Below are positions 12,442-26,002 of a stretch of DNA of 46,163 nucleotides, one piece after another; position 1 is the first letter of the stretch, and every line of letters begins with the position of its first letter. The notes beneath the pieces were generated by a model that was given only the letters and a program-made list of their open reading frames with translations, had not been told where the DNA came from and ran no database searches. The stretch is from NCBI GenBank assembly GCA_024399535.1, contig JAKSNU010000006.1, positions 1-46,163 on the forward strand, given 5' to 3'. This DNA comes from Paludibacteraceae bacterium (GTDB lineage: Bacteria > Bacteroidota > Bacteroidia > Bacteroidales > Paludibacteraceae). The translations under genes and the position numbers were made by a program.

Positions 12442-13041
12442 ATGAAAATACCTGTGCCATTCCCTCATATTGCCAATATGTCTGATGCTCAGCTTGTGCC
12501 TAAAATAAAGGACAGAAAGGAGCGTGAGACTGTGGAGTTTTTCTATGGCAAGGCTGCACCTATTTTCATAAAATTGTTCAATGGCTATTTCACAGATTGT
12601 CAGACACCTATCGAGTTTATCGACGATTTCTATGCCGACTTGATGGTTGAGCGGCAATCAGTAGGCAGTCGTAAGATTGATGGGTTTGCATACGATTGTC
12701 TTTTTAAGAATTGGATAGGCAAGATTGCTTTGATTTTTTGTTTTGACCGTTATTCGATGAAGGAGAAACGCAACGAGGCGTTGTCGGACTATGCAAAGCT
12801 AAATCCAGAGCCACAATTGATGCAGAATATCGCTTCGCTTGACCGCCGGGATGTCAGTATGCTGCTTTCGATGATGCCCAATCGTCAGTATAGCGAGTTG
12901 ATTCGTATGGTTTATGTTGACGGAATGACGTTGCATGATACGGCTGAGACTCTCGGTGTTGAGATGGATAGATTTTTCAATATGCACCGGCGTGCAAAAC
13001 TGCAATATACACAGGTCTATAATAAGGAGATTAGGAAATGA
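12442..13041 (+). CDS. ECF-like sigma-70 family factor
   Basis: The protein has 199 residues. A poorly conserved region 2 lies at about 25-100. The C-terminal part (about 130-195) fits sigma region 4: MLLSMMPNRQYSELIRMVYVD, then GMTLHDTAETLGVEMDRFFN as the helix-turn-helix, then a basic HRRAKLQY. The size and the following one-membrane-span gene, overlapping by four bases (ATGA), are typical for an extracytoplasmic-function sigma/anti-sigma pair. The region 2 match is weak, so this is a divergent member. Confidence 0.75.
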   Translation: MKIPVPFPHIANMSDAQLVPKIKDRKERETVEFFYGKAAPIFIKLFNGYFTDCQTPIEFIDDFYADLMVERQSVGSRKIDGFAYDCLFKNWIGKIALIFCFDRYSMKEKRNEALSDYAKLNPEPQLMQNIASLDRRDVSMLLSMMPNRQYSELIRMVYVDGMTLHDTAETLGVEMDRFFNMHRRAKLQYTQVYNKEIRK

Positions 13042-13436
13042 ACGAAAAACTATTTTCAAGAATATCTCGCGAGAAACTGGAAATGTATCTTGACGGCTCG
13101 TTGGACGAGCGGGAAACTGCCGAGTTTGACCATTTGCTGGATGATGACGCTGAGTTACAGCTGCTTGTTGATGAATATGTGAGACTACAAATGCAGATAA
13201 ACAATGAAGCACTCAGCGAATATAGTCAAAGCAAACCATTGAAACGAAATAGGTTGATTTGGCTCTCGGTAGGTGCAGCTTGCTGCTTGGCTTTGGTAGT
13301 GTCGTTGACTATGATTTCCGGGCCTTCTGACAATCATATTCAGCAACCTGATGATACTCCGGTATTTCGTGGTAATGACACTTTGTTTGATGCTAATCTC
13401 GATTCAATGCAGATTGATAAAACCGATTCTATATAA
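13038..13436 (+). CDS. Membrane anti-sigma factor candidate
   Basis: The protein has 132 residues. The cytoplasmic part (1-72) begins with a helical LEMYLDGSLDERETAEFDHL segment, like the sigma-binding start of Bacteroidetes anti-sigma factors; it lacks the zinc HxxxCxxC motif. One membrane span follows (about 73-94, LIWLSVGAACCLALVVSLTM). The exported tail of about 38 residues is rich in Asp (PDDTPVFRGNDTLFDANLDS). A short aspartate-rich exported tail is a plausible protease target. The gene overlaps the sigma gene by four bases and precedes the caspase gene by five. Confidence 0.65.
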   Translation: MNEKLFSRISREKLEMYLDGSLDERETAEFDHLLDDDAELQLLVDEYVRLQMQINNEALSEYSQSKPLKRNRLIWLSVGAACCLALVVSLTMISGPSDNHIQQPDDTPVFRGNDTLFDANLDSMQIDKTDSI

Positions 13437-13441
13437 TAGCT

Positions 13442-14284
13442 ATGCGAAGAATATTTTTGTTTATCATGTTGTTGTTGTCAGTGAATCTATATTCACAGAC
13501 GCGGCGTGCGTTGGTCGTTGGCATAGGGAAATATCCTAAAGAGACTGGTTGGCAGACCATTCACGGGGATGTTGATGCAGACAGCATCACCTGCATGTTG
13601 CAGAATGCGGGTTTCGACGATGTCGTTACTTTGAAGAACTCAGCTGCAACTAAGGCATCTATAGTAGAGGCTTTTCATGCGTTGGCGCATCAGTCGTCCG
13701 AAGGCGACATTGTGTATGTCCATTTCTCGGGTCATGGTCAGCAGATGATAGACCGCAACTCTGATGAGTCTGACAAAAGGGATGAGAGTTGGATACCCTA
13801 TGATGCTTATCGTAAACCAAATTCCAAGGATAGGGGCGAGAAACATCTTGTTGACGATGAGGTGGGTGTGTTGCTTGATGCAATTCAAGCAAAAATTGGC
13901 AAAAGCGGACGCATTGTTGTTGTGGTAGATGCTTGTCATAGTGGTACTTCTACTCGTGGCGAGGCTAAACATCGAGGAACAAGCATTCCGTTTGTCAGAG
14001 AAAATCAGGTTGCTGCGCATAATAGTGACGCACATACATGGCTGCTTATAAGCGCATGTCGTGACGACCAATTGAATTCCGAGATGAGCAATCCGAGAAT
14101 GGGACTTCTGTCGTATGCCATATGTACAGCCATACGATATGCCAACGGATGGAATAACGCACGTTTCTTTGCTGAATTACAGAGGATTGTCAATCGTTAT
14201 AAGTCACAAGATACTGACCAGACAATAATGGTGAGTGGCGATACATACCGTTTCAATATTGTTAAAGTACTATCAAAACAGTAA
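13442..14284 (+). CDS. Secreted caspase-family (C14) protease
   Basis: The protein has 280 residues. A signal peptide (MRRIFLFIMLLLSVNLYSQ) is followed by a caspase/metacaspase p20-like fold: ALVVGIGKYP at 23-32, the catalytic His98 in HFSGHGQ, and the catalytic Cys165 in VVDACHSGTS. Asp-rich loops (DRNSDESDKRDESW at 104-117) resemble metacaspase calcium or substrate loops. It is expected in the periplasm or outside the cell. It lies in the same operon as the sigma pair and a TPR-CHAT protease, five bases after the anti-sigma gene and four before the CHAT gene. Confidence 0.88.
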   Translation: MRRIFLFIMLLLSVNLYSQTRRALVVGIGKYPKETGWQTIHGDVDADSITCMLQNAGFDDVVTLKNSAATKASIVEAFHALAHQSSEGDIVYVHFSGHGQQMIDRNSDESDKRDESWIPYDAYRKPNSKDRGEKHLVDDEVGVLLDAIQAKIGKSGRIVVVVDACHSGTSTRGEAKHRGTSIPFVRENQVAAHNSDAHTWLLISACRDDQLNSEMSNPRMGLLSYAICTAIRYANGWNNARFFAELQRIVNRYKSQDTDQTIMVSGDTYRFNIVKVLSKQ

Positions 14285-14288
14285 TGCT

Positions 14289-16916
14289 ATGAGAAGAATT
14301 TCACTGCTTATGTTGTCTATGATGATGACAGCTATGGCGTTTGCGCAGGAGTCGCCATGCGATAGTCTGTTTGCTAAAGCCAGGGAATATGACGAGCTCT
14401 ATAATTTTCAGGACGCATACGAGACATTTTCTGCTGCAAGGGATTGCTATTCCGAGTATGGCTTGACATCTGACGTTGCACGTTGTCTGAGCGAAATGGC
14501 TGGGCAGATGTCAGAACTGAACGAAAATGATAGTGCAATTGTTTTATTCTCAGAGGCAGAATCGCTTGCTATCTCTAACCATGATACCATGTTGGCACTC
14601 TCAATTTTACGTGCTGAGAGGCGTTTCTATTATTATCTCGGTGATGTGCAGTCCAGAACTCGCATAGCTCTGCTCATCGACTCGTTGCAGGAGGGAATTT
14701 CGGATGTGATGACTATTTTCGAGTTTGACGTAAAGGATTGTCGTGAGGCGATGGATTTCTATAAAGATTTCGACCAAGCGGAGTACTATCTTTTGCGTCA
14801 TAGGAATCTGTTTTCACAACTTTCGGAAGAGGACCGTATGTTTTGCAATGGCGAGATTGATATACTGATGCGCGACCTTCGTCGTAAGCAGAAACGTTAT
14901 GATGAAGCGATAGAATATGGTTTGCGCTATCTCAACTATCGTCGTAATAATCCGAAAGTCACTGATGTCTCGCTTGCCATGCAGTATGTCTATCTGTCGG
15001 ATATCTATAGTTTTGTTAATGATACAGTCAATACGGTGCTATATGCCGACAGCACTATGGCTTGTGCTATAAAATATGAAAATCCTGCAATATCCTCAGC
15101 CTTCGGTACTGCGACATCAATTGCATTGCAGCGTGTCGGTCAGTACGAAAAAGCGATAGACATACTCGAGTGGTCCGACTCGACAATAATGCTTTCAGAG
15201 AGTAGGACTCTTGAACATATTTTGAATATTCGTTTGGCAAAAACAGTTGTAAGTTACAGGGAACAGCGTTTCGATGAGTGTGTGGGCTATTATGAAGCAG
15301 TCATTGACCTTTCGCGTCAGAAATACGGCGAGCATAGCGAGGATTATAGCCGTGACCTCTACAATTTCAGCAAGGTTCTCGGATTGACTCACGATTATGC
15401 CCGAGCATCGGAATATGCGATATTATCATCGAAGATTCTGAGGGAGGTCGTGTGCGATAATATTCAGGCGGTATCGTCAACCGATTTTTCCGCCTATTGG
15501 CAAGATATTTCCAACCGATTGTTCAATATATCCTCAATAGCTGTTAATGCAGGCGAATTGTCAAGTCCGTTGACTCTTGCAGCCTACGAGTCACTTCTTT
15601 TTTCACGCTCATTGCTGCTTGAGTCATCACTCACAATCGACAATTTAGTGATGAATAGTGGCAATAGCGAGGCACAGGAACTCTATGAAAGTGTGAAAAC
15701 CATGAAAGCCAATTTGAATAAGGTGCAAAAGAATAATAAGAATGCAGATGCAATTGCCAACCTAAAAGATAGCATAATTACGGCAGAACATCGTCTGACA
15801 GTTCTCATCCCTTCTTATGGGACACATGCCGATTTCCTCAACCAGAAACATTCAGATATTGTCAATTCTCTCCCTCGGCATTCGTTGCTTGTGGAGTTTT
15901 TTGACTATTATCGTCCTTCTGACAAACAGCAGGTGTATCTTGCCTTTGTGGTTGACCCTAAACGTGAATACCCATTGTTGCTGCAACTCTTCACTGGAAA
16001 TGAATTAGATTCAGTGCTTGATGGACAGAGAATTAGTTCGCTCTATTCACCCGAGCATAACCGGAAGGCACGAAGGCTGATATGGGATAAGATAGCTCAA
16101 TATGTGCCTAAGGGATATGACGTCTATTATGTTCCTTCTGGCATACTCCATCAGGTGTCGCTTGAGTCGTTCAAGGCTGACAATGGTCAGTTGCTTTCAA
16201 AACGAAACGACTTCTTCCGTCTTTCGTCAGGACGTGAGTTGCTGAGGTTTGACCAGCATGTTTCTCTTCCAATGAATCTTCAACTGTATGGAGGTCTCAC
16301 CTACGACACTACGCTTTTCGAAAACAACTATGAGTATTTGTCAGGGACTGCCGACGAGGTGAAAGATATATCGGCAATTGCTGTGGCTGGTGGCGCAGAT
16401 GTGACTATGCTGTCAGGTGATGAAGGTACGATAGCTTCACTTATGGCTCTCACACACAAAGCTCCGAAAATTATTCATATAGCTACCCATGGTTATTATT
16501 TCACACCTGACGAGGCTCAGGAGGTTAATCTCGTCAAGGGATATACTGATGCAATGTTGCTCAGCGGATTGATTATGTCAGGTTCGAATATCTCAGCCAA
16601 CGAGATTTCGCAACTTGACCTTTCTTCTGCATCGCTTGTCGTTCTTTCCTCATGTCAGTCAGGTATTGGAAATTCCACACCTGAAGGACTTTATGGTCTT
16701 CAGCGCGCCTTTAAGCGTGCTGGTGTGCGTACGCTTGTAATGACGTTGTGGAACATCGACGACAAGGTGACGAGACGGTTTATGAGCAAATTCTACGAAC
16801 GTCTTGTCGCTACAGGTTGGAACAAGCATCAGGCATTTCGCGAGGCACGCAGTTTCATCATCAAGCAATATCCCGAATCGCCTAACCTCTGGGCATGTTT
16901 TGTGATGATTGATTGA
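14289..16916 (+). CDS. Secreted TPR-CHAT protease
   Basis: The protein has 875 residues. A signal peptide (MRRISLLMLSMMMTAMAFAQ) is followed by a long helical TPR-like region (about 25-480) and a C-terminal CHAT domain (about 560-875). Catalytic His734 lies in IIHIATHGYYF and Cys789 in VVLSSCQSG, with the conserved ending LWACFVMID. CHAT domains are caspase-related peptidases (separin/Csx29 group). The ATG at 14289 is chosen because it starts the signal peptide; the frame extends upstream to 14235 inside the caspase gene. It is the last gene of the operon, followed by a hairpin at 16952-16975. Confidence 0.88.
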   Translation: MRRISLLMLSMMMTAMAFAQESPCDSLFAKAREYDELYNFQDAYETFSAARDCYSEYGLTSDVARCLSEMAGQMSELNENDSAIVLFSEAESLAISNHDTMLALSILRAERRFYYYLGDVQSRTRIALLIDSLQEGISDVMTIFEFDVKDCREAMDFYKDFDQAEYYLLRHRNLFSQLSEEDRMFCNGEIDILMRDLRRKQKRYDEAIEYGLRYLNYRRNNPKVTDVSLAMQYVYLSDIYSFVNDTVNTVLYADSTMACAIKYENPAISSAFGTATSIALQRVGQYEKAIDILEWSDSTIMLSESRTLEHILNIRLAKTVVSYREQRFDECVGYYEAVIDLSRQKYGEHSEDYSRDLYNFSKVLGLTHDYARASEYAILSSKILREVVCDNIQAVSSTDFSAYWQDISNRLFNISSIAVNAGELSSPLTLAAYESLLFSRSLLLESSLTIDNLVMNSGNSEAQELYESVKTMKANLNKVQKNNKNADAIANLKDSIITAEHRLTVLIPSYGTHADFLNQKHSDIVNSLPRHSLLVEFFDYYRPSDKQQVYLAFVVDPKREYPLLLQLFTGNELDSVLDGQRISSLYSPEHNRKARRLIWDKIAQYVPKGYDVYYVPSGILHQVSLESFKADNGQLLSKRNDFFRLSSGRELLRFDQHVSLPMNLQLYGGLTYDTTLFENNYEYLSGTADEVKDISAIAVAGGADVTMLSGDEGTIASLMALTHKAPKIIHIATHGYYFTPDEAQEVNLVKGYTDAMLLSGLIMSGSNISANEISQLDLSSASLVVLSSCQSGIGNSTPEGLYGLQRAFKRAGVRTLVMTLWNIDDKVTRRFMSKFYERLVATGWNKHQAFREARSFIIKQYPESPNLWACFVMID

Positions 16917-17163: not shown

Positions 17164-17862
17164 ATGATTATGAAGAAAAAGAAAATCAACGGAGAACTTC
17201 AGTCCCGTCGTGAATTTTTCAAACGAGCGGCAAAAGGTGCTTTGCCAATAATTGCATGTTTGGCGCTGCCATCAATGTTGACGGAGTGTTCTCCAGTGAA
17301 TGAACCAAACGGAGGATGTAGTTCTTGTTCTACAGTTTGTGCAAGTGATTGTTCATCATCATGTACGAGTGGGTGTACGACATCATGTACGGGTAGTTGT
17401 ACAGGTTCGTCCACAGGGTCAACATGTTCTTCATGTTCTTCTTCATGTTCAAGTGGTTGTACAGGTTCTTCCTCCGGCTCATGTTCTTCATGTTCTTCTT
17501 CTTGTTCGGGAGGATGTTCTGGTTCATGTAACACGTCATGTACTGCAACCTGCGCAAGTGCATGTCAAGGTTCTTCGCAGAAATCTTGCAATTCATGTAC
17601 ATCATCGTGCCGTTCATCATGTTCAAGTTATTGTGATGATTCTTGTTCTCGTTCATGTGGAGGCGATTGCCATAGTGCTTGTAATTCCTGCTCTGGATTA
17701 TGTGTAAGTTCATGTAGTGGCACAAATACGCAACGTTGTAGTTCATGCAATAATTCATGTAGTATGTATTGCGTTGGATCGTGTTCAACATTGTGTAAGT
17801 CTGGATGTGATTCCACTTGTTATTACACATGTCATTATGGTTGTACCGATATGTCAAGTTAA
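17164..17862 (+). CDS. CXXX-repeat peptide precursor with twin-arginine signal
   Basis: The protein has 232 residues. The N-terminus carries a Tat signal: SRREFFKRAAKGALP (residues 14-28), then the hydrophobic IIACLALPSML. A short linker ends in NGG at 48-50. The remaining 182 residues hold 42 cysteines, nearly all in CxxxC spacing, with Ser, Thr, Gly and Asn between. Blocks open with a CxxC and are separated by linkers of 7-8 residues such as TGSSTGST, TGSSSGS, QGSSQKS and SGTNTQR. This matches the CXXX-repeat targets of radical SAM maturases; neighbours 17885-20384 fit that role. The product is expected to be modified in the cytoplasm, then exported folded by Tat. Cleavage after GG is possible. 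Start 17170 is an alternative. Confidence 0.88.
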   Translation: MIMKKKKINGELQSRREFFKRAAKGALPIIACLALPSMLTECSPVNEPNGGCSSCSTVCASDCSSSCTSGCTTSCTGSCTGSSTGSTCSSCSSSCSSGCTGSSSGSCSSCSSSCSGGCSGSCNTSCTATCASACQGSSQKSCNSCTSSCRSSCSSYCDDSCSRSCGGDCHSACNSCSGLCVSSCSGTNTQRCSSCNNSCSMYCVGSCSTLCKSGCDSTCYYTCHYGCTDMSS

Positions 17863-17884
17863 GATTGGATTAATATACCTTTAA

Positions 17885-19105
17885 ATGGAAAATCTCAAAA
17901 TTAGACCTGAAGGCAAGGTTTGGCAAGATGGTGTTTCGAAAAGCATAACATTTATTGTCACTAAGGATTGTCAGCTCGCCTGCAAATATTGTTATCTTGT
18001 TGGCAAGAACTCCAAGGAGAGGATGTCGTTTGAGACAGCAAAGTCTGCCGTTGATTACATTTTAAGTCATGAATCGCAGTTTACTGAAGCATCTGTGGTT
18101 TGGGATTTCATTGGTGGAGAACCTTTCTTGGAAGTAGATTTGATAGATCGGATTTGTGACTATATTAAAATTGAGATGTATAGGAGGAATCATCATTGGT
18201 TCGGTTCGTATCGGTTTTCTCTAACTACAAATGGTATTAATTATGACACTCCGAAAGTACAGGACTTTATCAAAAAAAACAAAAACCATTTGAGTGTTGG
18301 TCTGACGATAGATGGAACAAAAGTCAAGCATGATTTGAATCGCATTTATAAAAAATCTGGAAAAGGTTCATACGAAGATGTGGTGAGAAATATTCCTCTA
18401 TGGATGTCTCAATTTCCGTTTGAAGGGACGAAGGTGACCATTAGTTCGGAGGATATCCCTTACATAGCAGAAAGCGTACTTCATATATATAGTCTTGGTA
18501 TTCACCAGGTCAATATTAACTGTGTTTTCGAGGATGTATGGAAAGAAGGTGACGATAAATTATTTGAAAGACAATTGGTTTCGCTTGCCGATTCTATTAT
18601 TGACAACGATTTATATAAAGACTATTCCTGTTCGTTTTTCAGTGAACATATCGGTAAACCACAAAATCCGATTGACGAAAACCAGAACTGGTGTGGAGCA
18701 GGTCAAATGTTGGCAATAGATGCAAATGGCATATTTTATCCTTGTACTCGGTTTGCTCAGTATTCTTTAAGGGAGAAAAAGGCATGGACCATAGGCAATA
18801 TTCATGATGGTATTGATCAAAACCGACTTCGTCCTTTCTTAACACTTGACCGTTGTACGCAGAGCAAACCTGAATGTATCAGTTGCGAAGTGTCACGTGG
18901 ATGCGCTTGGTGTCAAGGAGAAAATTATGATGCGGCTGAAACTCCTACTGCTTACCAAAGGGCAACTGCAATTTGCAAAATGCATAAGGCTCGGGTGAGA
19001 GCAAACAATTACTATTGGAATAAACTTTATCGTAAACTTGAGTTGGAGGGATTGCGCGAAGAGTTTGAAAAAAACAAACCTAAGTCTAAAGATTTAATTT
19101 GCTGA
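17885..19105 (+). CDS. Radical SAM/SPASM peptide maturase (CXXX-repeat type)
   Basis: The protein has 406 residues. The radical SAM motif is CQLACKYC (Cys29, 33, 36), followed by the SAM-contact strand FIGGEPF (about 76-82). The C-terminal SPASM region contains cysteines in NWCGAG (Cys270), FYPCTRF, CISCEVSRGCAWC (about 328-340) and AICKMH, enough for two auxiliary 4Fe-4S clusters. Enzymes of this class install thioether or related crosslinks in ribosomal peptides. It starts 22 bases after the precursor and fits the family named 'radical SAM peptide maturase, CXXX-repeat target'. The bond it makes is unknown from sequence. Confidence 0.9.
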   Translation: MENLKIRPEGKVWQDGVSKSITFIVTKDCQLACKYCYLVGKNSKERMSFETAKSAVDYILSHESQFTEASVVWDFIGGEPFLEVDLIDRICDYIKIEMYRRNHHWFGSYRFSLTTNGINYDTPKVQDFIKKNKNHLSVGLTIDGTKVKHDLNRIYKKSGKGSYEDVVRNIPLWMSQFPFEGTKVTISSEDIPYIAESVLHIYSLGIHQVNINCVFEDVWKEGDDKLFERQLVSLADSIIDNDLYKDYSCSFFSEHIGKPQNPIDENQNWCGAGQMLAIDANGIFYPCTRFAQYSLREKKAWTIGNIHDGIDQNRLRPFLTLDRCTQSKPECISCEVSRGCAWCQGENYDAAETPTAYQRATAICKMHKARVRANNYYWNKLYRKLELEGLREEFEKNKPKSKDLIC

Positions 19106-19109
19106 TAAC

Positions 19110-20093
19110 ATGCTTCAATATCTTATCATTTTATTGGATGACACTTCGACATCATTCTGTCACTATGAGTGTACCAAGGTCAATCGAAAGTTGATATCGT
19201 TGGAAAATCTCAGAGAAGGAATCTTTTTCGCAATGGAGGAGAACATGATGATTCAGTTTGTCTATCCAGACTATAATTTACCTCAAGAGTATGAGGATGT
19301 TATTGAAAGTATAGACCATAGTAAGATAAAACCAGCATCATGTTGCGACAATGCAGATGTTGTTATTCTCAACTCGTTGGATGAAACTTCTGATTTTCAG
19401 TTTCAAGAAGGGATTCCATATGTGTTGCGAATTGATAAGGAAAATCTATTCAGCTATAGGCAAGAGGTGAGGGATATAATTGAAAAAGTGGCTCGATTGA
19501 ATGTGGTAATAACTGATATAGATTCATTTACCGATGATGATTTTACCACGTACAAGGAGTTTCTTTCGGAGTCTGTGGGTCAATTGATTGATTTATATAC
19601 AAAGGGCATGACACCGCAGTTCAATTTGTTGACAGACCGTATGATGTTGCATGAGATGAACAATTGCAATGCTGGACACGAAACTCTAACTCTCGCTCCA
19701 GATGGGAATTTTTACGTTTGTCCTGCTTTTTATTATGCTTCTCCATGTGATGGCAAAGAAATCTCATTGGCGGATGTCTGTAAAAAGGGATTTTCTGTTG
19801 GTTCACTGGAGAAAGGTTTAGATGTAAAGAACAAGCATTTGTATAAAATTGATTATGCTCCTATTTGCAGGATTTGTGATGCATTCCAATGCAAGCGTTG
19901 TGCTTGGTTGAATCGCAAGACGACATTAGAGGTCAACACGCCGAGTCGTCAACAATGTGTTGTTGCTCACATCGAGCGAAATGCATCACGTATGTTGTTA
20001 GAGGGATTTCGTAAAAAAGGGTTTTACTTGCCAGAACAGGAGATAAAAGAGATAGATTATCTCGACCCATTTGAAATAAAAAGGAAAAGATAA
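19110..20093 (+). CDS. CXXX-repeat peptide maturase, SPASM-like without radical SAM motif
   Basis: The protein has 327 residues and begins 4 bases after the radical SAM gene. No CxxxCxxC motif is present. The N-terminal half is acidic with no clear domain. The C-terminal half resembles a SPASM region: NNCNAGHETLTLAPDGNFYVCPAF (read in two parts around Cys187 and Cys204), then CRICDAFQCKRCAW and a late Cys in RQQCVVAH. It probably binds auxiliary Fe-S clusters and partners with the upstream enzyme, as described for the 'CXXX repeat peptide maturase' family. A catalytic role is not demonstrable from sequence. Confidence 0.75.
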   Translation: MLQYLIILLDDTSTSFCHYECTKVNRKLISLENLREGIFFAMEENMMIQFVYPDYNLPQEYEDVIESIDHSKIKPASCCDNADVVILNSLDETSDFQFQEGIPYVLRIDKENLFSYRQEVRDIIEKVARLNVVITDIDSFTDDDFTTYKEFLSESVGQLIDLYTKGMTPQFNLLTDRMMLHEMNNCNAGHETLTLAPDGNFYVCPAFYYASPCDGKEISLADVCKKGFSVGSLEKGLDVKNKHLYKIDYAPICRICDAFQCKRCAWLNRKTTLEVNTPSRQQCVVAHIERNASRMLLEGFRKKGFYLPEQEIKEIDYLDPFEIKRKR

Positions 20094-20105
20094 ATCAAAG
20101 ATATT

Positions 20106-20384
20106 ATGGAAAAGAAAATTGTAGGACAGGTTTCTGTCGAAGAAAGAGATGAGATTCAATCACTTTTTGAACGTAAAAATGGTCTCAGTGAGTTGGCTAA
20201 AATTCTTACTGCTGACAATGGTGAATTGTATGAAAGGCTCATCAAAGATATGGGCGAAACAGGTACTAAATTCCAGAATTGGTGGACTCGTATGAGTGAA
20301 AAATACAATTGGAAGTCTGCTGAAAACGGGAAATGGGAGATTAATTTCGATACATGTGAAATTTATCTTGTGATAGAAAAATGA
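20106..20384 (+). CDS. Small CXXX-repeat peptide modification system protein
   Basis: The protein has 92 residues, no signal peptide and no cysteine motif. It is helical at the start (VSVEERDEIQSLFERKNGL) with a tail rich in Trp and Lys (WWTRMSEKYNWKSAENGKW) and a short strand at the end. Size and position fit the accessory protein of CXXX-repeat clusters, perhaps a leader-binding or chaperone-like partner. It begins 12 bases after the maturase and overlaps tatA by four bases (ATGA). Confidence 0.6.
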   Translation: MEKKIVGQVSVEERDEIQSLFERKNGLSELAKILTADNGELYERLIKDMGETGTKFQNWWTRMSEKYNWKSAENGKWEINFDTCEIYLVIEK

Positions 20385-20629
20385 TTCTTATGCTAATAGT
20401 ACCATTGTTTATTGGAACTACAGAACTTCTGCTAATCTGCGGACTTGCTCTTTTGTTGTTCGGAGGAAAGAAATTGCCTGAAATGATGAGAGGGCTTGGG
20501 CAGGGAGTACAGAGTTTTAAGGAAGGAATGAATAGTGCGGTGAATTCTGAGGAACAGCCAGGAAAAACACAAGATTCATCTGCGAAAAATGCAGAGTCTG
20601 AAAATAAGCCAGATGTCGGAGAACAATGA
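20381..20629 (+). CDS. tatA: Sec-independent protein translocase TatA
   Basis: The protein has 82 residues. One N-terminal membrane span (about 8-25) ends in the hinge FGGKKLPEMMRGLGQGVQ, followed by the amphipathic helix and SFKEGM, then a Glu/Ser-rich tail. This is the standard TatA layout. Its start overlaps the 92-residue gene and its end overlaps tatC, so it belongs to the peptide cluster transcript. No tatB is present, as in minimal TatA-TatC systems. Confidence 0.93.
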   Translation: MILMLIVPLFIGTTELLLICGLALLLFGGKKLPEMMRGLGQGVQSFKEGMNSAVNSEEQPGKTQDSSAKNAESENKPDVGEQ

Positions 20630-21395
20630 AATGTTGACATTCGGAGGGCATCTTGAAGTGTTGCGCAAGATGCTTTTCCGTGTGTTGGTTGTGTCTGGAG
20701 TTATAGCAGTAGTTGTGTTTTTTTTCAAGGATGTCGTTTTTAGTGTGTTGTTGGCTCCTGGAGAATATGATTTCTGTACATACCGATGGATTGAACGTCT
20801 GATTAAGTTCTGTGGATACGATTTCACCTTCGAGGAATATCATGTCGATTTAATAGCTACTGACCTCAGCAGTCAGTTTATGACGCATATTACAACATCA
20901 TGTATTCTTGGTTTGCTCGGTGCATCCCCATATGTGCTGTATGAACTTTTCAGATTTGTATCACCTGCTTTATACGAAAACGAACGGAAATATTCTGTCA
21001 GCATAGTTGTCTCTGTGTATCTTCTCTTTATGGCAGGTGTACTTATGAGTTATTTTGTGCTTTTCCCAATATCCTTTAGATTTTTGGGAACATATTCTGT
21101 TTCAAAACAGATACGAAGCACTATAACTCTCGATTCGTATATCACTACATTTTCTACTTTGACGTTTGTAATGGGTGTAGTTTTCCAATTGCCAGTCATA
21201 GCTTTTGCTCTTGCTAAAATGGAAATCGTGACTGCCAAGATGCTTGCTACATATCGTCGCCATGCGTTTTTGATAATTTGCATAGTCGCTGCTATTATAA
21301 CGCCTCCCGACATTATGACTTTAATTGTAGTAGCAATCCCATTGTATCTACTTTATGAATTTAGCATACGAATAGTAAAGTTAGTTGAAAAATAA
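20613..21395 (+). CDS. tatC: Sec-independent protein translocase TatC
   Basis: The protein has 260 residues with six predicted membrane segments. Hallmarks are the cytoplasmic LTFGGHLEVLRKMLFR start (usually FxxHLxELR), FVSPALYENERKY with its glutamate, and ITPPDIMT near the end. It forms the signal-peptide receptor of the Tat pore. ATG 20613 overlaps tatA by 17 bases; the ATG at 20631 is an alternative. Being the last gene of the peptide cluster suggests coupling to export of the Tat-signal precursor, although it may also serve the whole cell. Confidence 0.93.
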   Translation: MSENNEMLTFGGHLEVLRKMLFRVLVVSGVIAVVVFFFKDVVFSVLLAPGEYDFCTYRWIERLIKFCGYDFTFEEYHVDLIATDLSSQFMTHITTSCILGLLGASPYVLYELFRFVSPALYENERKYSVSIVVSVYLLFMAGVLMSYFVLFPISFRFLGTYSVSKQIRSTITLDSYITTFSTLTFVMGVVFQLPVIAFALAKMEIVTAKMLATYRRHAFLIICIVAAIITPPDIMTLIVVAIPLYLLYEFSIRIVKLVEK

Positions 21396-22771: not shown

Positions 22772-24586
22772 ATGAAAAGATTATCTATTATTTGTTTGTT
22801 GTTATTGTCGGTAATGGCAATAAACGCAGCCAAGCTGCACAGAATTGAAGAAAAAGGTAAATACGGTTATGCCGATGAGGCTGGAAACATCGTTGTGAAA
22901 TGTAATTTAACCTATGCTATGGATTTCAGCCAAGGTTTGGCATACGTTTGTAGGAAATTTAAAATTTTAGGTGCTGACTGTGCGGAGCAAGGTTTTATCG
23001 ATGAGACTGGAAAATTCGTCATTCGTATTAGTGATGGTGTCGGAATGGTGCCGTTGATTGATCCTGCAAATTACAAAGGCGACGAGATTATGTTCAAAGA
23101 TGATTTTGTGAAAATACCATCTGCCGTTCCTTATTATATATCCTTGTATCAAGGAGTTGTCGAGTCGTGCCGTCCGCGAAAAGACCAATTGGGCAATGGA
23201 GGATTGGAAATGTTGTTTCAGTCAAATATAAGTAATGGTATTTTTGACAGAGGTGCTACGTTAAATGTGACTGGATTTAAAGAGTTTGTTGATAGGGGTG
23301 ATGTATTGATTGGCGTGTCGAGAAATGGAAATGAATTGGCATTTGACAAGAACAGTCATTTTCCATACTCGTCCTATTATTTTTCATACCAAATAGAAAA
23401 CAACTATTATGCAGCCAGCAGTTCTATTTGGACAGGTGAGTTCGGTGTCGTATATGCGACTACTTTACTGACCAATATAGTCCCATCACCCTATTTATAT
23501 ACAAAATACGGAGAGTCGAATAATTATTTTGATTCGCTTAACGTGCTGAAGTTTGACAATGGAGACATGATGTTTGTGACGTATGTGGATAAAACTAATC
23601 ATTATAGGTTGCTTGACAAAACTTGTACTACGGTTGCAGATGGTACGACTGAAATTAAGAGTTACTTACAAAACAAGAGTTATAAGTTGGTAGAATACAA
23701 GAATCTGACAAGCGGACCAATTGTTGATTGTATAAAATCCGCACCTGTCGAGAGGGTGACCGATCCATCGAATATGTACAGCAAGCATCAGACTGGTTCT
23801 GTATGGAAGAAGAAAGATATTTCGAAGATGATATTAAATCCTGACTCGTTTTCGAGTAAGCCGCTCAGATTGACTGTTGTGAACGGGTTCAATGGTCAGA
23901 GACAATCTTCAAAGCCTGTATCTTTCAATCCAAAAAAAGATAATATTTCTGATATTATAATCTCAGACATTGCATTTCCACATATAGTGGTGTTGAATAA
24001 TAAGGGAAAGGAATGCAAGATGGAGGATTTTGAAATTACCAGTTCATCTGATAAGGTTGAAATCAAAGGAAATGACATCAAGCTGAATGTGACAGCAATG
24101 GATGTGGTGAAAGGTAAAGTTGAGAAGGAGTATGATGTTACCGTGAAACATATTGCGTCAGGAGTACAGACCACTATAAAAATCGCACCAATGTTTGTTG
24201 ACAGTATTACAGACAACCGTGCAATGCAGACATACGTGTTCACTGAGATTCCAGGTGAAACGAGAACAGATTATGCAATTTGCTATAAGATTGATACCAA
24301 AGAGTATGAAGTGGTGAAGATGCCATTTAAAATTAATGCAAAAGGAAAAGATGGGGCAAACGGAGGAATCAATGGCAATTATGTTACTCCTGGTCAAAAT
24401 GGCGGTTTTGGTGCGAATTTAGTTGTGTATATGTCAAAATATTTCAAAGAGCATTTCGGGGAGCAGAGTTTGAAAATAGAGACTGATGGAGGTAAAGGTG
24501 GCAAAGGAGGGCAGTCCGGTTCGGTAAAAGCTGATGACGGAAAAGAAGGAGAGAAGGGCGTTCTGGAATTTGTAACGCTGAAATAA
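22772..24586 (+). CDS. Exported WG-repeat protein with glycine-rich tail
   Basis: The protein has 604 residues. A signal peptide (MKRLSIICLLLLSVMAINA) is followed by WG-type repeats at about 20-100 (GKYGYADEAGNIVV, EQGFIDETGKFVI). The middle has no domain I recognise. The C-terminal 90 residues are glycine-rich, with collagen-like runs such as GKDGANGGINGN and GGKGGKGGQSGS around 530-590. It is likely surface or periplasmic. Similar first-half repeats recur in the gene at 24740. Confidence 0.75.
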   Translation: MKRLSIICLLLLSVMAINAAKLHRIEEKGKYGYADEAGNIVVKCNLTYAMDFSQGLAYVCRKFKILGADCAEQGFIDETGKFVIRISDGVGMVPLIDPANYKGDEIMFKDDFVKIPSAVPYYISLYQGVVESCRPRKDQLGNGGLEMLFQSNISNGIFDRGATLNVTGFKEFVDRGDVLIGVSRNGNELAFDKNSHFPYSSYYFSYQIENNYYAASSSIWTGEFGVVYATTLLTNIVPSPYLYTKYGESNNYFDSLNVLKFDNGDMMFVTYVDKTNHYRLLDKTCTTVADGTTEIKSYLQNKSYKLVEYKNLTSGPIVDCIKSAPVERVTDPSNMYSKHQTGSVWKKKDISKMILNPDSFSSKPLRLTVVNGFNGQRQSSKPVSFNPKKDNISDIIISDIAFPHIVVLNNKGKECKMEDFEITSSSDKVEIKGNDIKLNVTAMDVVKGKVEKEYDVTVKHIASGVQTTIKIAPMFVDSITDNRAMQTYVFTEIPGETRTDYAICYKIDTKEYEVVKMPFKINAKGKDGANGGINGNYVTPGQNGGFGANLVVYMSKYFKEHFGEQSLKIETDGGKGGKGGQSGSVKADDGKEGEKGVLEFVTLK

Positions 24587-24608
24587 CACCATTCCTTTAG
24601 GTTTTGCT

Positions 24609-24648
24609 ATGTTCAGAAAGTCTTATCTGTCAGAGGCTTTCTGAACAT
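24609..24648 (+). terminator. 12-bp stem hairpin after the WG-repeat gene
   Basis: ATGTTCAGAAAG (24609-24620) pairs perfectly with CTTTCTGAACAT (24637-24648), with a 16-base loop. There is no T-run. Confidence 0.65.
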
Positions 24649-24739
24649 TATAAACGGAACCCGAAAACTTGCAAAATGGATTTATAAAACTTACCTATAG
24701 AATTCTCATAAAAACCTCAAAGTAGAAATGATAAACTTT

Positions 24740-26002
24740 ATGAAACGTCTAATTATTATTTCAATAATTGCCTTATTGTCAACATCATTGATTGGGCAAG
24801 ATTTTGAAACTTTCAAGAAGGGAAAGTTCATGGGTCTGCGCAAAGGGGAAGAAACCGTCATCGTCACACCAGACAAATATAATTTCATCGGCAATATCGT
24901 TGATAAATACACCTGGGTGAATGTAGGCGGGAAAAAACACTGTAAAAGTTTTCCCAATGGCGGGAAATGGGGTGTGATAGACTCGACTGGAAGGGAGGTC
25001 TGTCCTCCTGTGTATGACTACGTTGCAGCGTGTCGTAACGATTTCGTTGTGGTCAACGTAGGAGGAAGTGTGATTGGTTCTTATGTGACTGGTGGCAAAT
25101 GGGGTTTGTATGACTTAAAGAGTGGTAAGGTTGCCATTGAACCGTCTTACACGTTGCTTTCGGCTGTTAACGATGACGGCAGATTATGGGCTTGCATGGA
25201 CGGTAAAATGGATTTCCGCATACTTGGTGATACCATCTTCGGGAAGAAAAAAAAAGTTGAGGATTTTGAGCCGTATTTTGAATATATAACCCTTTATCCT
25301 CTGAACATGACAATATGTCACGAGTCGAAATATGGGGATTGGTCTTTGATTGACACAGAGAACAACACACTCACAACTAATAGTTATTCAACGGTTTTCG
25401 ATTTCATAGATGGATATTCGCTTGTGTATTCTAAAGGACGTTACGGGTATATTGATCGCAATGGGCGTGAGACCGTACGTCCTGAATACGTTATGCTCAC
25501 AATTTCAAACAATGGACGTTGTTGTTGGTCGCGCAAAACCGAATATTCAAGGGTTGGGCTGATTGACATAACCAACGGCAATGAGATAACCGATGAGATT
25601 TTCGACCAGCCAGGTTCATTGTTCTTTGGATCTGTGGCATGGGTTAAACTTGGGGGGATGTACTGTTTGATTGATACGGCAGGAACGCAGTTGACCCAGC
25701 CAAAATATTCGAAGGTTTCTCCATTCGTGAATGGAATCGCTATTGTGTATCTGTCAAAATACGCTGTGGGCGCAGTGAACAGTGAAGGAAAGGAGATTGT
25801 TGAGCCTATTTACACTCAGGCGGCTCCGCTGTTCGGTGAGGGGTCGCAGTTTAGGACAACAGGCGATTTGCTCATTTCATGGTTCTTTCATCCTAAAAGA
25901 GGGGTCGTGTGGATAGATCAGAACGGAAAAATAGTTTTGGGTGACGCAAAGAAGCAATTTGCAATTGACGAAGTCATTCCAGAAGAATTATGGGACTATT
26001 AA
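24740..26002 (+). CDS. Exported WG-repeat protein
   Basis: The protein has 420 residues with a signal peptide (MKRLIIISIIALLSTSLIGQ) and at least five WG-like repeats: GGKWGVIDSTGREV, GGKWGLYDLKSGKV, GRYGYIDRNGRETV, GGMYCLIDTAGTQL and a divergent VGAVNSEGKEIV. These form beta-rich repeats often found in cell-surface proteins of Bacteroidetes. The ATG at 24728 is an in-frame alternative. It is followed within ten bases by the next gene, suggesting an operon to 28762. The sequence AAAACCTCAAA (24711-24721) before it also precedes both copies of the LPP20-like gene. Confidence 0.8.
   Translation: MKRLIIISIIALLSTSLIGQDFETFKKGKFMGLRKGEETVIVTPDKYNFIGNIVDKYTWVNVGGKKHCKSFPNGGKWGVIDSTGREVCPPVYDYVAACRNDFVVVNVGGSVIGSYVTGGKWGLYDLKSGKVAIEPSYTLLSAVNDDGRLWACMDGKMDFRILGDTIFGKKKKVEDFEPYFEYITLYPLNMTICHESKYGDWSLIDTENNTLTTNSYSTVFDFIDGYSLVYSKGRYGYIDRNGRETVRPEYVMLTISNNGRCCWSRKTEYSRVGLIDITNGNEITDEIFDQPGSLFFGSVAWVKLGGMYCLIDTAGTQLTQPKYSKVSPFVNGIAIVYLSKYAVGAVNSEGKEIVEPIYTQAAPLFGEGSQFRTTGDLLISWFFHPKRGVVWIDQNGKIVLGDAKKQFAIDEVIPEELWDY

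What the first reader, a model, noticed from the sequence alone, without database searches (positions are those of the whole stretch)
17164..21395. Cysteine-repeat peptide cluster that appears to carry its own Tat translocase
Six tightly packed genes run in order: a Tat-signal precursor with 42 cysteines, a radical SAM/SPASM maturase, a SPASM-like partner without the radical SAM motif, a 92-residue accessory protein, tatA and tatC. The last three overlap or nearly overlap (ATGA at 20381; 17 bases at 20613), so they are likely translated together. Tat exports folded, cofactor-loaded or crosslinked proteins, which is what a heavily crosslinked peptide would need. CXXX-repeat maturases are a named family group; a dedicated TatA-TatC pair as part of the cluster is, as far as I know, not a described feature.
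Basis: partly seen in the sequence, partly recalled or inferred. Interest (0 to 1): 0.92.

Follow-up and report, generated by a model that had tools for sequence, protein, structure and literature searches.

The report
Crosslinked-peptide operon with its own exporter
A gut bacterium's operon that appears to make a cysteine-studded, enzyme-modified protein also encodes its own membrane machine for exporting already-folded proteins, and the same pairing recurs in dozens of relatives, which suggests that the protein is finished inside the cell and then shipped out whole.

Summary
On one strand (17164-21395) lie a Tat-signal precursor with a 42-Cys CXXX tract, TIGR04115 radical SAM maturase, TIGR04119 partner, TIGR04116 protein, tatA and tatC; the genome has another tatAC elsewhere. 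In relatives found with the TIGR04116 protein, tatC follows within 0.75 kb in 52 of 58 loci (one copy broken). In the window's family all 33 genomes with the system have tatC, against 191 of 325 without it; in 15 of the 33 every tatC found is cluster-linked. Cluster TatCs form three groups (one group rejected, p 2e-12), so tatAC joined, or was replaced in, this operon about three times. 85 of 90 precursor tracts follow an RRxF Tat motif. Linkage is not universal: distant relatives and some close ones use an unlinked tatC, and one lineage whose CXXX peptide lacks a Tat signal has no linked pair. Best reading: a radical-SAM-modified Cys-repeat protein finished in the cytoplasm and exported folded by a dedicated minimal Tat. 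The parts are known families; a dedicated Tat in such a system did not appear in my paper searches. Chemistry, export and purpose are untested.

The parts
17164..17862 (+). CXXX-repeat precursor with Tat signal peptide (232 aa)
   Evidence: TIGR04117 35.7 bits, below cut-off; leader profile A3 (to which it contributed) finds only this gene in the own genome at E up to 0.01
17164..17292 (+). Tat signal / leader, ELQSRREFFKRAAKGALPII..., ending in a lipobox-like LTEC
   Evidence: Alignment A3: RRxFF and a Pro in the hydrophobic part invariant in 32 leaders; the lipobox of the window copy is weak (Glu before Cys)
17317..17844 (+). Cys tract: 42 Cys, mostly C-x3-C
   Evidence: of 40 Cys-Cys steps counted in the window tract 31 are of 4 residues; over all 85 precursors 1394 of 1561 steps (89%)
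17885..19105 (+). Radical SAM/SPASM maturase (TIGR04115)
   Evidence: 635 bits; next best NCBIfam model PapB ranthipeptide maturase 207 bits; nearest solved sequence 5wgg, E 1.6e-26
19110..20093 (+). TIGR04119 partner: SPASM-like Cys array without the radical SAM CX3CX2C motif
   Evidence: weak SPASM and PapB C-terminal matches in a homologue (L197)
20106..20384 (+). TIGR04116 92-aa protein, probable maturase subunit
   Evidence: 99 bits; 22 invariant columns in 49 sequences; fused to TIGR04119 in L195
20381..20629 (+). tatA
   Evidence: overlaps the preceding gene by ATGA
20613..21395 (+). tatC (frame open from ATG 20589)
   Evidence: lies in a group of 45 cluster-linked TatCs (SH-aLRT 99, quick tree), apart from the genome's other TatC

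Best explanation
This is a self-contained make-and-export module. The precursor is made with a Tat signal that also appears to act as the recognition leader. In the cytoplasm, the radical SAM enzyme (TIGR04115), with TIGR04119 and TIGR04116 as working partners, modifies the CXXX array, most likely with Cys-derived thioether crosslinks. The finished, conformationally locked protein would not thread through Sec and is carried across the inner membrane folded by the module's own minimal TatA-TatC. It is then cleaved, or lipid-anchored in the lipobox type, in the cell envelope. Shown: gene content, order, conservation, Tat motif on the precursors, separate TatC lineages. Inferred: crosslink chemistry, order of steps, that this TatAC exports this precursor, final location.
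For: tatC downstream on the same strand in 52 of 58 loci, median acc-to-tatA gap 5 bases by longest-ORF starts; 30 of 34 full-length TIGR04116 loci in the family have tatC within about 0.5 kb (matched by eye). Among ORFs of 90 aa or more in window plus 58 loci, beyond the module's parts and an ORF group lying across acc and the tat genes, the widest shared families occur in 6, 4 and 4 loci. 85 of 90 distinct Cys tracts in 70 loci follow RRxF. tatC in 33 of 33 CXXX+ genomes against 191 of 325 CXXX- (p 7e-8), and two or more tatC matches in 17 of 33 against 5 of 325 (p 5e-16). Cluster TatC needs 3 label changes on the tree; the one-clade tree is rejected, p-AU 1.9e-12. The leader profile finds 20 genes in 16 of 16 CXXX+ genomes tested (three of which supplied leaders to it), all on the contig of a CXXX cluster, and none in 7 CXXX- genomes. 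TIGR04119-TIGR04116 fusion (L195) and radical SAM-TIGR04119 fusion (L216) tie the three maturation proteins together. In L216 the only CXXX peptide seen has no Tat signal and no tatAC is linked.
Against: Five close loci (L010, L021, L040, L053, L057) have Tat-signal precursors but no tatC in the stretch seen; L010 shows only 1 kb downstream. L037 ends after tatA. L091 and L092 keep tatA but no tatC; L093 has neither. In L056 tatC is broken. Distant CXXX loci in 5 of 5 genomes lack linked tatC, and L220 has a Tat-signal precursor with its tatC far off on the same contig. So an ordinary Tat seems able to serve. No crosslink or export is shown. The three TatC groups could reflect in-place replacement rather than fresh recruitment, and the tree is a quick one. 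The co-occurrence tests do not correct for relatedness. Leader conservation could be due to Tat targeting alone.
Confidence: 0.7

Rival explanations
1. Portable-kit (selfish operon) reading: tatAC is bundled not for specificity but because the module moves between Bacteroidales many of which lack Tat, so it must bring an exporter. Any TatAC would do.
For: 134 of 358 family genomes (37%) have no tatC match, though many are incomplete; 15 of 33 CXXX+ genomes have only cluster-linked tatC; few flanking families are shared between loci; the six loci without linked tatC lie in genomes with one tatC elsewhere; cluster TatC falls in three groups.
Against: 13 of 33 family genomes keep both a linked and an unlinked tatC (a 14th, G084, has a second copy at a contig end), which bare supply would not require; 45 cluster TatCs form one group with no unlinked member, as expected of a specialised translocase.
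Confidence: 0.4
2. The Cys array is a metal or Fe-S scaffold; the radical SAM proteins modify it lightly or assemble the cofactor, and Tat is used because the cargo is metal-loaded.
For: Tat classically exports cofactor-loaded proteins (abstract of PMC3712460); up to 62 Cys per precursor; 89% of Cys steps are of 4 residues.
Against: The maturase is closest, below their cut-offs, to Cys-peptide maturase models (PapB, CcpM, SCIFF) and to 5wgg; no metal-insertion family shows among the families shared by 4 or more loci.
Confidence: 0.2
3. TIGR04116, whose gene touches tatA, is a Tat proofreading chaperone of the NapD type that holds the signal peptide until modification is complete, rather than a maturase subunit.
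For: Gene overlap with tatA; the chaperone NapD binds an epitope overlapping the twin-arginine motif (abstract of PMC3712460); the RRxFF leader is highly conserved.
Against: It is fused to the TIGR04119 partner where no tatAC is linked (L195) and occurs in L216 where the CXXX peptide has no Tat signal. No PDB sequence match (best E 0.25).
Confidence: 0.15
4. Chance or ancestral neighbour: tatAC sits beside the cluster by vertical inheritance of gene order, without functional link.
For: The loci are relatives at 64-80% identity, nearly all Bacteroidales by title, many of them MAGs; some are near copies (L003/L004) and one isolate gives L014 and L015.
Against: Three separate TatC groups at the same place, few shared flanking families, Tat signals on the precursors.
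Confidence: 0.03

Closest known systems
CXXX-repeat radical SAM peptide system (NCBIfam TIGR04114, 04115, 04116, 04117, 04119)
   Same: Maturase, partner and 92-aa protein pass the curated cut-offs; C-x3-C repeat target
   Different: Linked tatA-tatC and a Tat-signal leader; the NCBIfam names seen here mention neither; their full descriptions were not seen
Ranthipeptides / SCIFF (PapB, CteB maturases)
   Same: Next-best model for the maturase is PapB (207 bits, cut-off 340); nearest solved sequence 5wgg (CteB by recall)
   Different: Under the PapB cut-off; Asp/Glu are rare in the repeat (6% of X residues; 61% Gly/Ser/Thr); the maturase aligns to 5wgg only from that chain's residue 94, where CteB has an N-terminal RRE (passages of PMC8326336)
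Bacillus subtilis TatAdCd with phoD (substrate-linked second Tat)
   Same: An extra TatA-TatC pair next to the gene of its substrate (passages of PMC3827258)
   Different: There the substrate is a phosphodiesterase; here a Cys-repeat protein with its radical SAM maturases
Redox-enzyme Tat substrates with NapD-type chaperones
   Same: Finished in the cytoplasm, then exported folded (abstract of PMC3712460)
   Different: Presumed modification of the chain rather than insertion of a ready cofactor; no known Tat chaperone family matched in the cluster

Membership tests
CXXX-repeat radical SAM system | TIGR04115 maturase over cut-off | tested here: met
   635 bits, cut-off 350
CXXX-repeat radical SAM system | TIGR04119 and TIGR04116 over cut-off, adjacent | tested here: met
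   233/150 and 99/50 bits
CXXX-repeat radical SAM system | Target with Cys every fourth residue | tested here: met
   31 CxxxC steps in the window precursor
CXXX-repeat radical SAM system | Target model TIGR04117 over cut-off | tested here: not met
   35.7 bits, cut-off 50; the model is named for another group (Syntroph_Cxxx), so I do not treat it as defining
CXXX-repeat radical SAM system | Post-translational modification of the target | not testable with these tools
   Needs mass spectrometry
TatAC translocase | TatA and TatC families over cut-off | tested here: met
   TIGR01411 55.3/53.9, PF02416 49/21, PF00902 210/25, TIGR00945 163/133
TatAC translocase | Moves RR-signal cargo | not testable with these tools
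   RRxFF on the cluster's own precursor
Dedicated (substrate-linked) Tat | Second, separate Tat in the genome | tested here: met
   G000:C9:32558-33223; but 15 of 33 family genomes have only linked copies
Ranthipeptide (PapB family) | PapB model over cut-off | tested here: not met
   206.9 bits, cut-off 340
Ranthipeptide | Non-alpha thioether crosslinks | not testable with these tools
   No product known
NapD-type Tat chaperone (TIGR04116) | NapD-like fold | not testable with these tools
   Structure prediction switched off; no sequence match in PDB

The most novel reading that the evidence does not exclude
A class of radical-SAM-modified Cys-repeat proteins whose leader is a Tat signal: the same short sequence steers the maturase and the translocase, and a specialised TatAC (the 45-member group) accepts only the finished, crosslinked protein. 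In some cells the whole Tat system exists for this one product, part of it anchored on the cell surface as a poly-thioether lipoprotein.
Probability: 0.4. Interest if true: 0.85.

Novelty: new variant of a known kind. Interest (0 to 1): 0.68.

Why it matters
It would join two fields that seem hardly to have met: radical SAM peptide modification and folded-protein export. A translocase tied to one small, defined, repetitive substrate is a handy model for how Tat senses that a cargo is finished, and the precursor, with or without its maturase, gives a clean test. It also gives gut and rumen Bacteroidales an unexplained envelope protein with up to 62 cysteines.

Tried and rejected
Structure prediction of the TIGR04116 and TIGR04119 proteins was switched off; PDB profile searches gave nothing convincing for TIGR04116 (best E 0.25) and only a weak match to the SPASM part of 5wgg for TIGR04119 (E 0.012). 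TIGR01409 as a census of Tat substrates proved too insensitive: of 16 genomes, 9 had a match at E up to 1 and 2 a match over the cut-off, and most known precursors were not reported. So whether genomes with only cluster-linked tatC have other Tat substrates stays open. So Bacillota were not tested. The idea that TIGR04116 is a Tat chaperone was lowered after the fusion was seen. The paper that I recall as founding the CXXX families (Haft and Basu 2011) was not held under the DOI that I recalled, so I cannot say whether it mentions Tat. Paper searches: searches found 0 papers; others listed 1 of 1, 20 of 35, 8 of 8, 4 of 4, 1 of 1, 6 of 8 and 12 of 32; no listed title or abstract start shows a CXXX/Tat link; unlisted rows were not seen. 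Of papers I saw: passages of PMC10352776 (0 occurrences of CXXX, Tat, twin-arginine or translocase as word starts), PMC3827258 (12 of 51 places) and PMC8326336 (12 of 14 places); abstract and section list of PMC3712460 and PMC5080379; listings only for all others.
Full report
What is there. Six genes lie on the + strand from 17164 to 21395 with gaps of 22, 4 and 12 bases, then overlaps of 4 and 17. Their families are clear: TIGR04115 radical SAM maturase, TIGR04119 partner, TIGR04116 92-aa protein (acc below), TatA, TatC. The precursor has a twin-arginine signal (SRREFF) and 42 cysteines in a CXXX tract.

Is the Tat pair the cell's only one? No. The window's own genome (80% complete) has a second tatA-tatC at G000:C9, near an SDR gene and genes that look like ftsY and rimO (the neighbour names are my reading of the sequences). 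The two TatCs are 44% identical and fall in different parts of the tree.

Is the link conserved? A scan of one genome per species with the TIGR04116 protein gave 58 loci, relatives at 64-80% identity, so close kin are favoured. tatC starts within 743 bases downstream on the same strand in 52 of 58; in one of these, L056, it is broken. L037 reaches its contig end after tatA. L010 (1 kb visible), L021, L040, L053 and L057 have none in the stretch seen (6 kb in the last four). In a second collection, 33 of 358 genomes of the window's family have TIGR04116; of 34 full-length loci 30 have tatC within about 0.5 kb (matched by eye), one (G303) is at a contig edge, and three (G051, G030, G159) are unlinked, two of which keep tatA. 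The two collections overlap (for example the G104 contigs have the lengths of those of L014 and L015), so these counts are not independent. In 295 genomes of the order of G365 (G365 included), 7 passed the TIGR04119 cut-off and 5 of these, G365 among them, have linked tatC. In a phylum-wide sample of 395, 6 passed the TIGR04115 cut-off including the window's; in the other 5 the only tatC is on another contig. The link is thus lineage-restricted.

Is the Tat pair needed? In the family, tatC is found in 224 of 358 genomes: 33 of 33 with the CXXX system and 191 of 325 without (Fisher p 7e-8); two or more tatC matches in 17 of 33 against 5 of 325, fragments included (p 5e-16). Relatedness and genome completeness are not corrected for in these tests. 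By eye: of the 33, 15 have only cluster-linked tatC (10 of these at least 90% complete and at most 5% contaminated), 13 have both kinds, 1 (G084) has a second copy at a contig end, 3 have only unlinked copies, and G303 is unclear. Of the 58 loci I tested the genomes of 43; all 43 have a tatC, including those of the six loci without a linked one.

History of TatC. In a quick tree of 120 TatCs, cluster-linked ones form three groups (45, 13 and 6 rows), the last two nested among unlinked TatCs ('unlinked' rests on the upstream stretch seen, and 4 rows at contig edges were not labelled). Holding all 64 together costs 185 log-likelihood units, p-AU 1.9e-12, on 112 rows after 8 were dropped. tatAC was therefore recruited about three times, or replaced in place; either way a Tat pair has been kept at this spot. 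Among ORFs of 90 aa or more in window plus 58 loci, no flanking family comes near this conservation: apart from the parts and an ORF group lying across acc and the tat genes, the widest occur in 6, 4 and 4 loci.

The precursors. Of 90 distinct Cys tracts in 70 loci, 85 follow RRxF; four of the rest have no signal region in frame before the tract (fragments by my reading; for the one in L093, which runs off the locus end, one search finds a leader just beyond) and one (L059) has an altered motif. The leaders are alike beyond the Tat motif: RRxFF and a proline in the hydrophobic part are invariant in 32. A profile of these finds 20 genes in 16 of 16 CXXX+ genomes, three of which supplied leaders, all on the contig of a CXXX cluster, and none in 7 CXXX- genomes. 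That is the basis for the idea that the signal doubles as maturase leader; it is inference. By a regular expression, 29 of 85 look lipobox-like, a few of them spuriously (in L026 and L046 the matched Cys seems part of the tract); these tend to have more Cys (p 0.001) and more acidic residues after the Cys (mean 2.1 against 1.0), and 5 carry K-(D/E)2, a motif of the surface signal described for Capnocytophaga lipoproteins (abstract of PMC5080379). The window's own box (LTEC-SPVNEP) is weak.

The maturation proteins. The maturase is nearest to Cys-peptide maturase families and to 5wgg. A fusion of TIGR04119 with TIGR04116 (L195; an ORF of the same 510-aa length in L196, not scanned) and one of radical SAM with TIGR04119 (L216) say that the three act together. 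In L216 the only CXXX peptide seen (70 aa, 13 Cys, 2.8 kb upstream of the maturase) has no Tat signal and no tatAC follows; in L195, L196 and L220 the signal is present without linkage. In L197-L199 no convincing precursor was seen. So the Tat signal reaches further than the linkage. At linked loci each Cys tract with a signal region in frame carried RRxF, save the one altered copy in L059, which has two normal ones beside it.

Verdict. Gene content, conservation and the precursor signal are shown. That this TatAC exports this precursor is strongly suggested. Crosslinks, order of steps, surface location and purpose are inferred. No such pairing appeared in the papers listed by my searches, but the paper that I recall as founding the family was not available.

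Noticed in passing
window 12442-16916: Upstream run: a 199-aa protein that looks like a sigma factor (my reading; Pfam only DUF1492 below cut-off), a 132-aa protein, a caspase-domain protein (PF00656, 80 bits) and a TPR-CHAT protein (PF12770, 153 bits): a possible protease signalling set. None of these is among the families shared by 4 or more CXXX loci.
   Followed up: partly
window 22772-26002: Two neighbouring proteins with WG repeats (PF14903) downstream.
   Followed up: no
L195:5436-6968 and L196:5726-7258: TIGR04119 fused to a C-terminal TIGR04116 domain (scanned in L195; the L196 ORF has the same length).
   Followed up: yes
L216:6101-8266: Radical SAM and TIGR04119 in one 721-aa ORF, with a CXXX peptide that has no Tat signal 2.8 kb upstream.
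   Followed up: yes
L091:6014-6223, L092:6411-6623: Clusters that keep tatA but not tatC; the only tatC found is elsewhere in the genome.
   Followed up: partly
L156:1682-3670: TatC with a roughly 400-residue C-terminal extension in the genome of L021, whose cluster has no tatAC.
   Followed up: no
L060, L218, L224: The record titled Pseudoflavonifractor carries Bacteroidales-type clusters, and its order search returned what looks like a genome of the window's family: probably mislabelled. L224 is a TIGR04116-tatA-tatC trio without full maturase genes in the stretch seen.
   Followed up: partly
L100 and L101: One genome (G104) holds two clusters, each with its own tatAC, and no other tatC found.
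   Followed up: partly
G342:C9:278876-279598 (L231, L240): Two TIGR01409 Tat-signal matches over the cut-off lie about 4 kb from that genome's unlinked tatC (C9:274494-275210): the unlinked Tat may have other cargo at hand.
   Followed up: no
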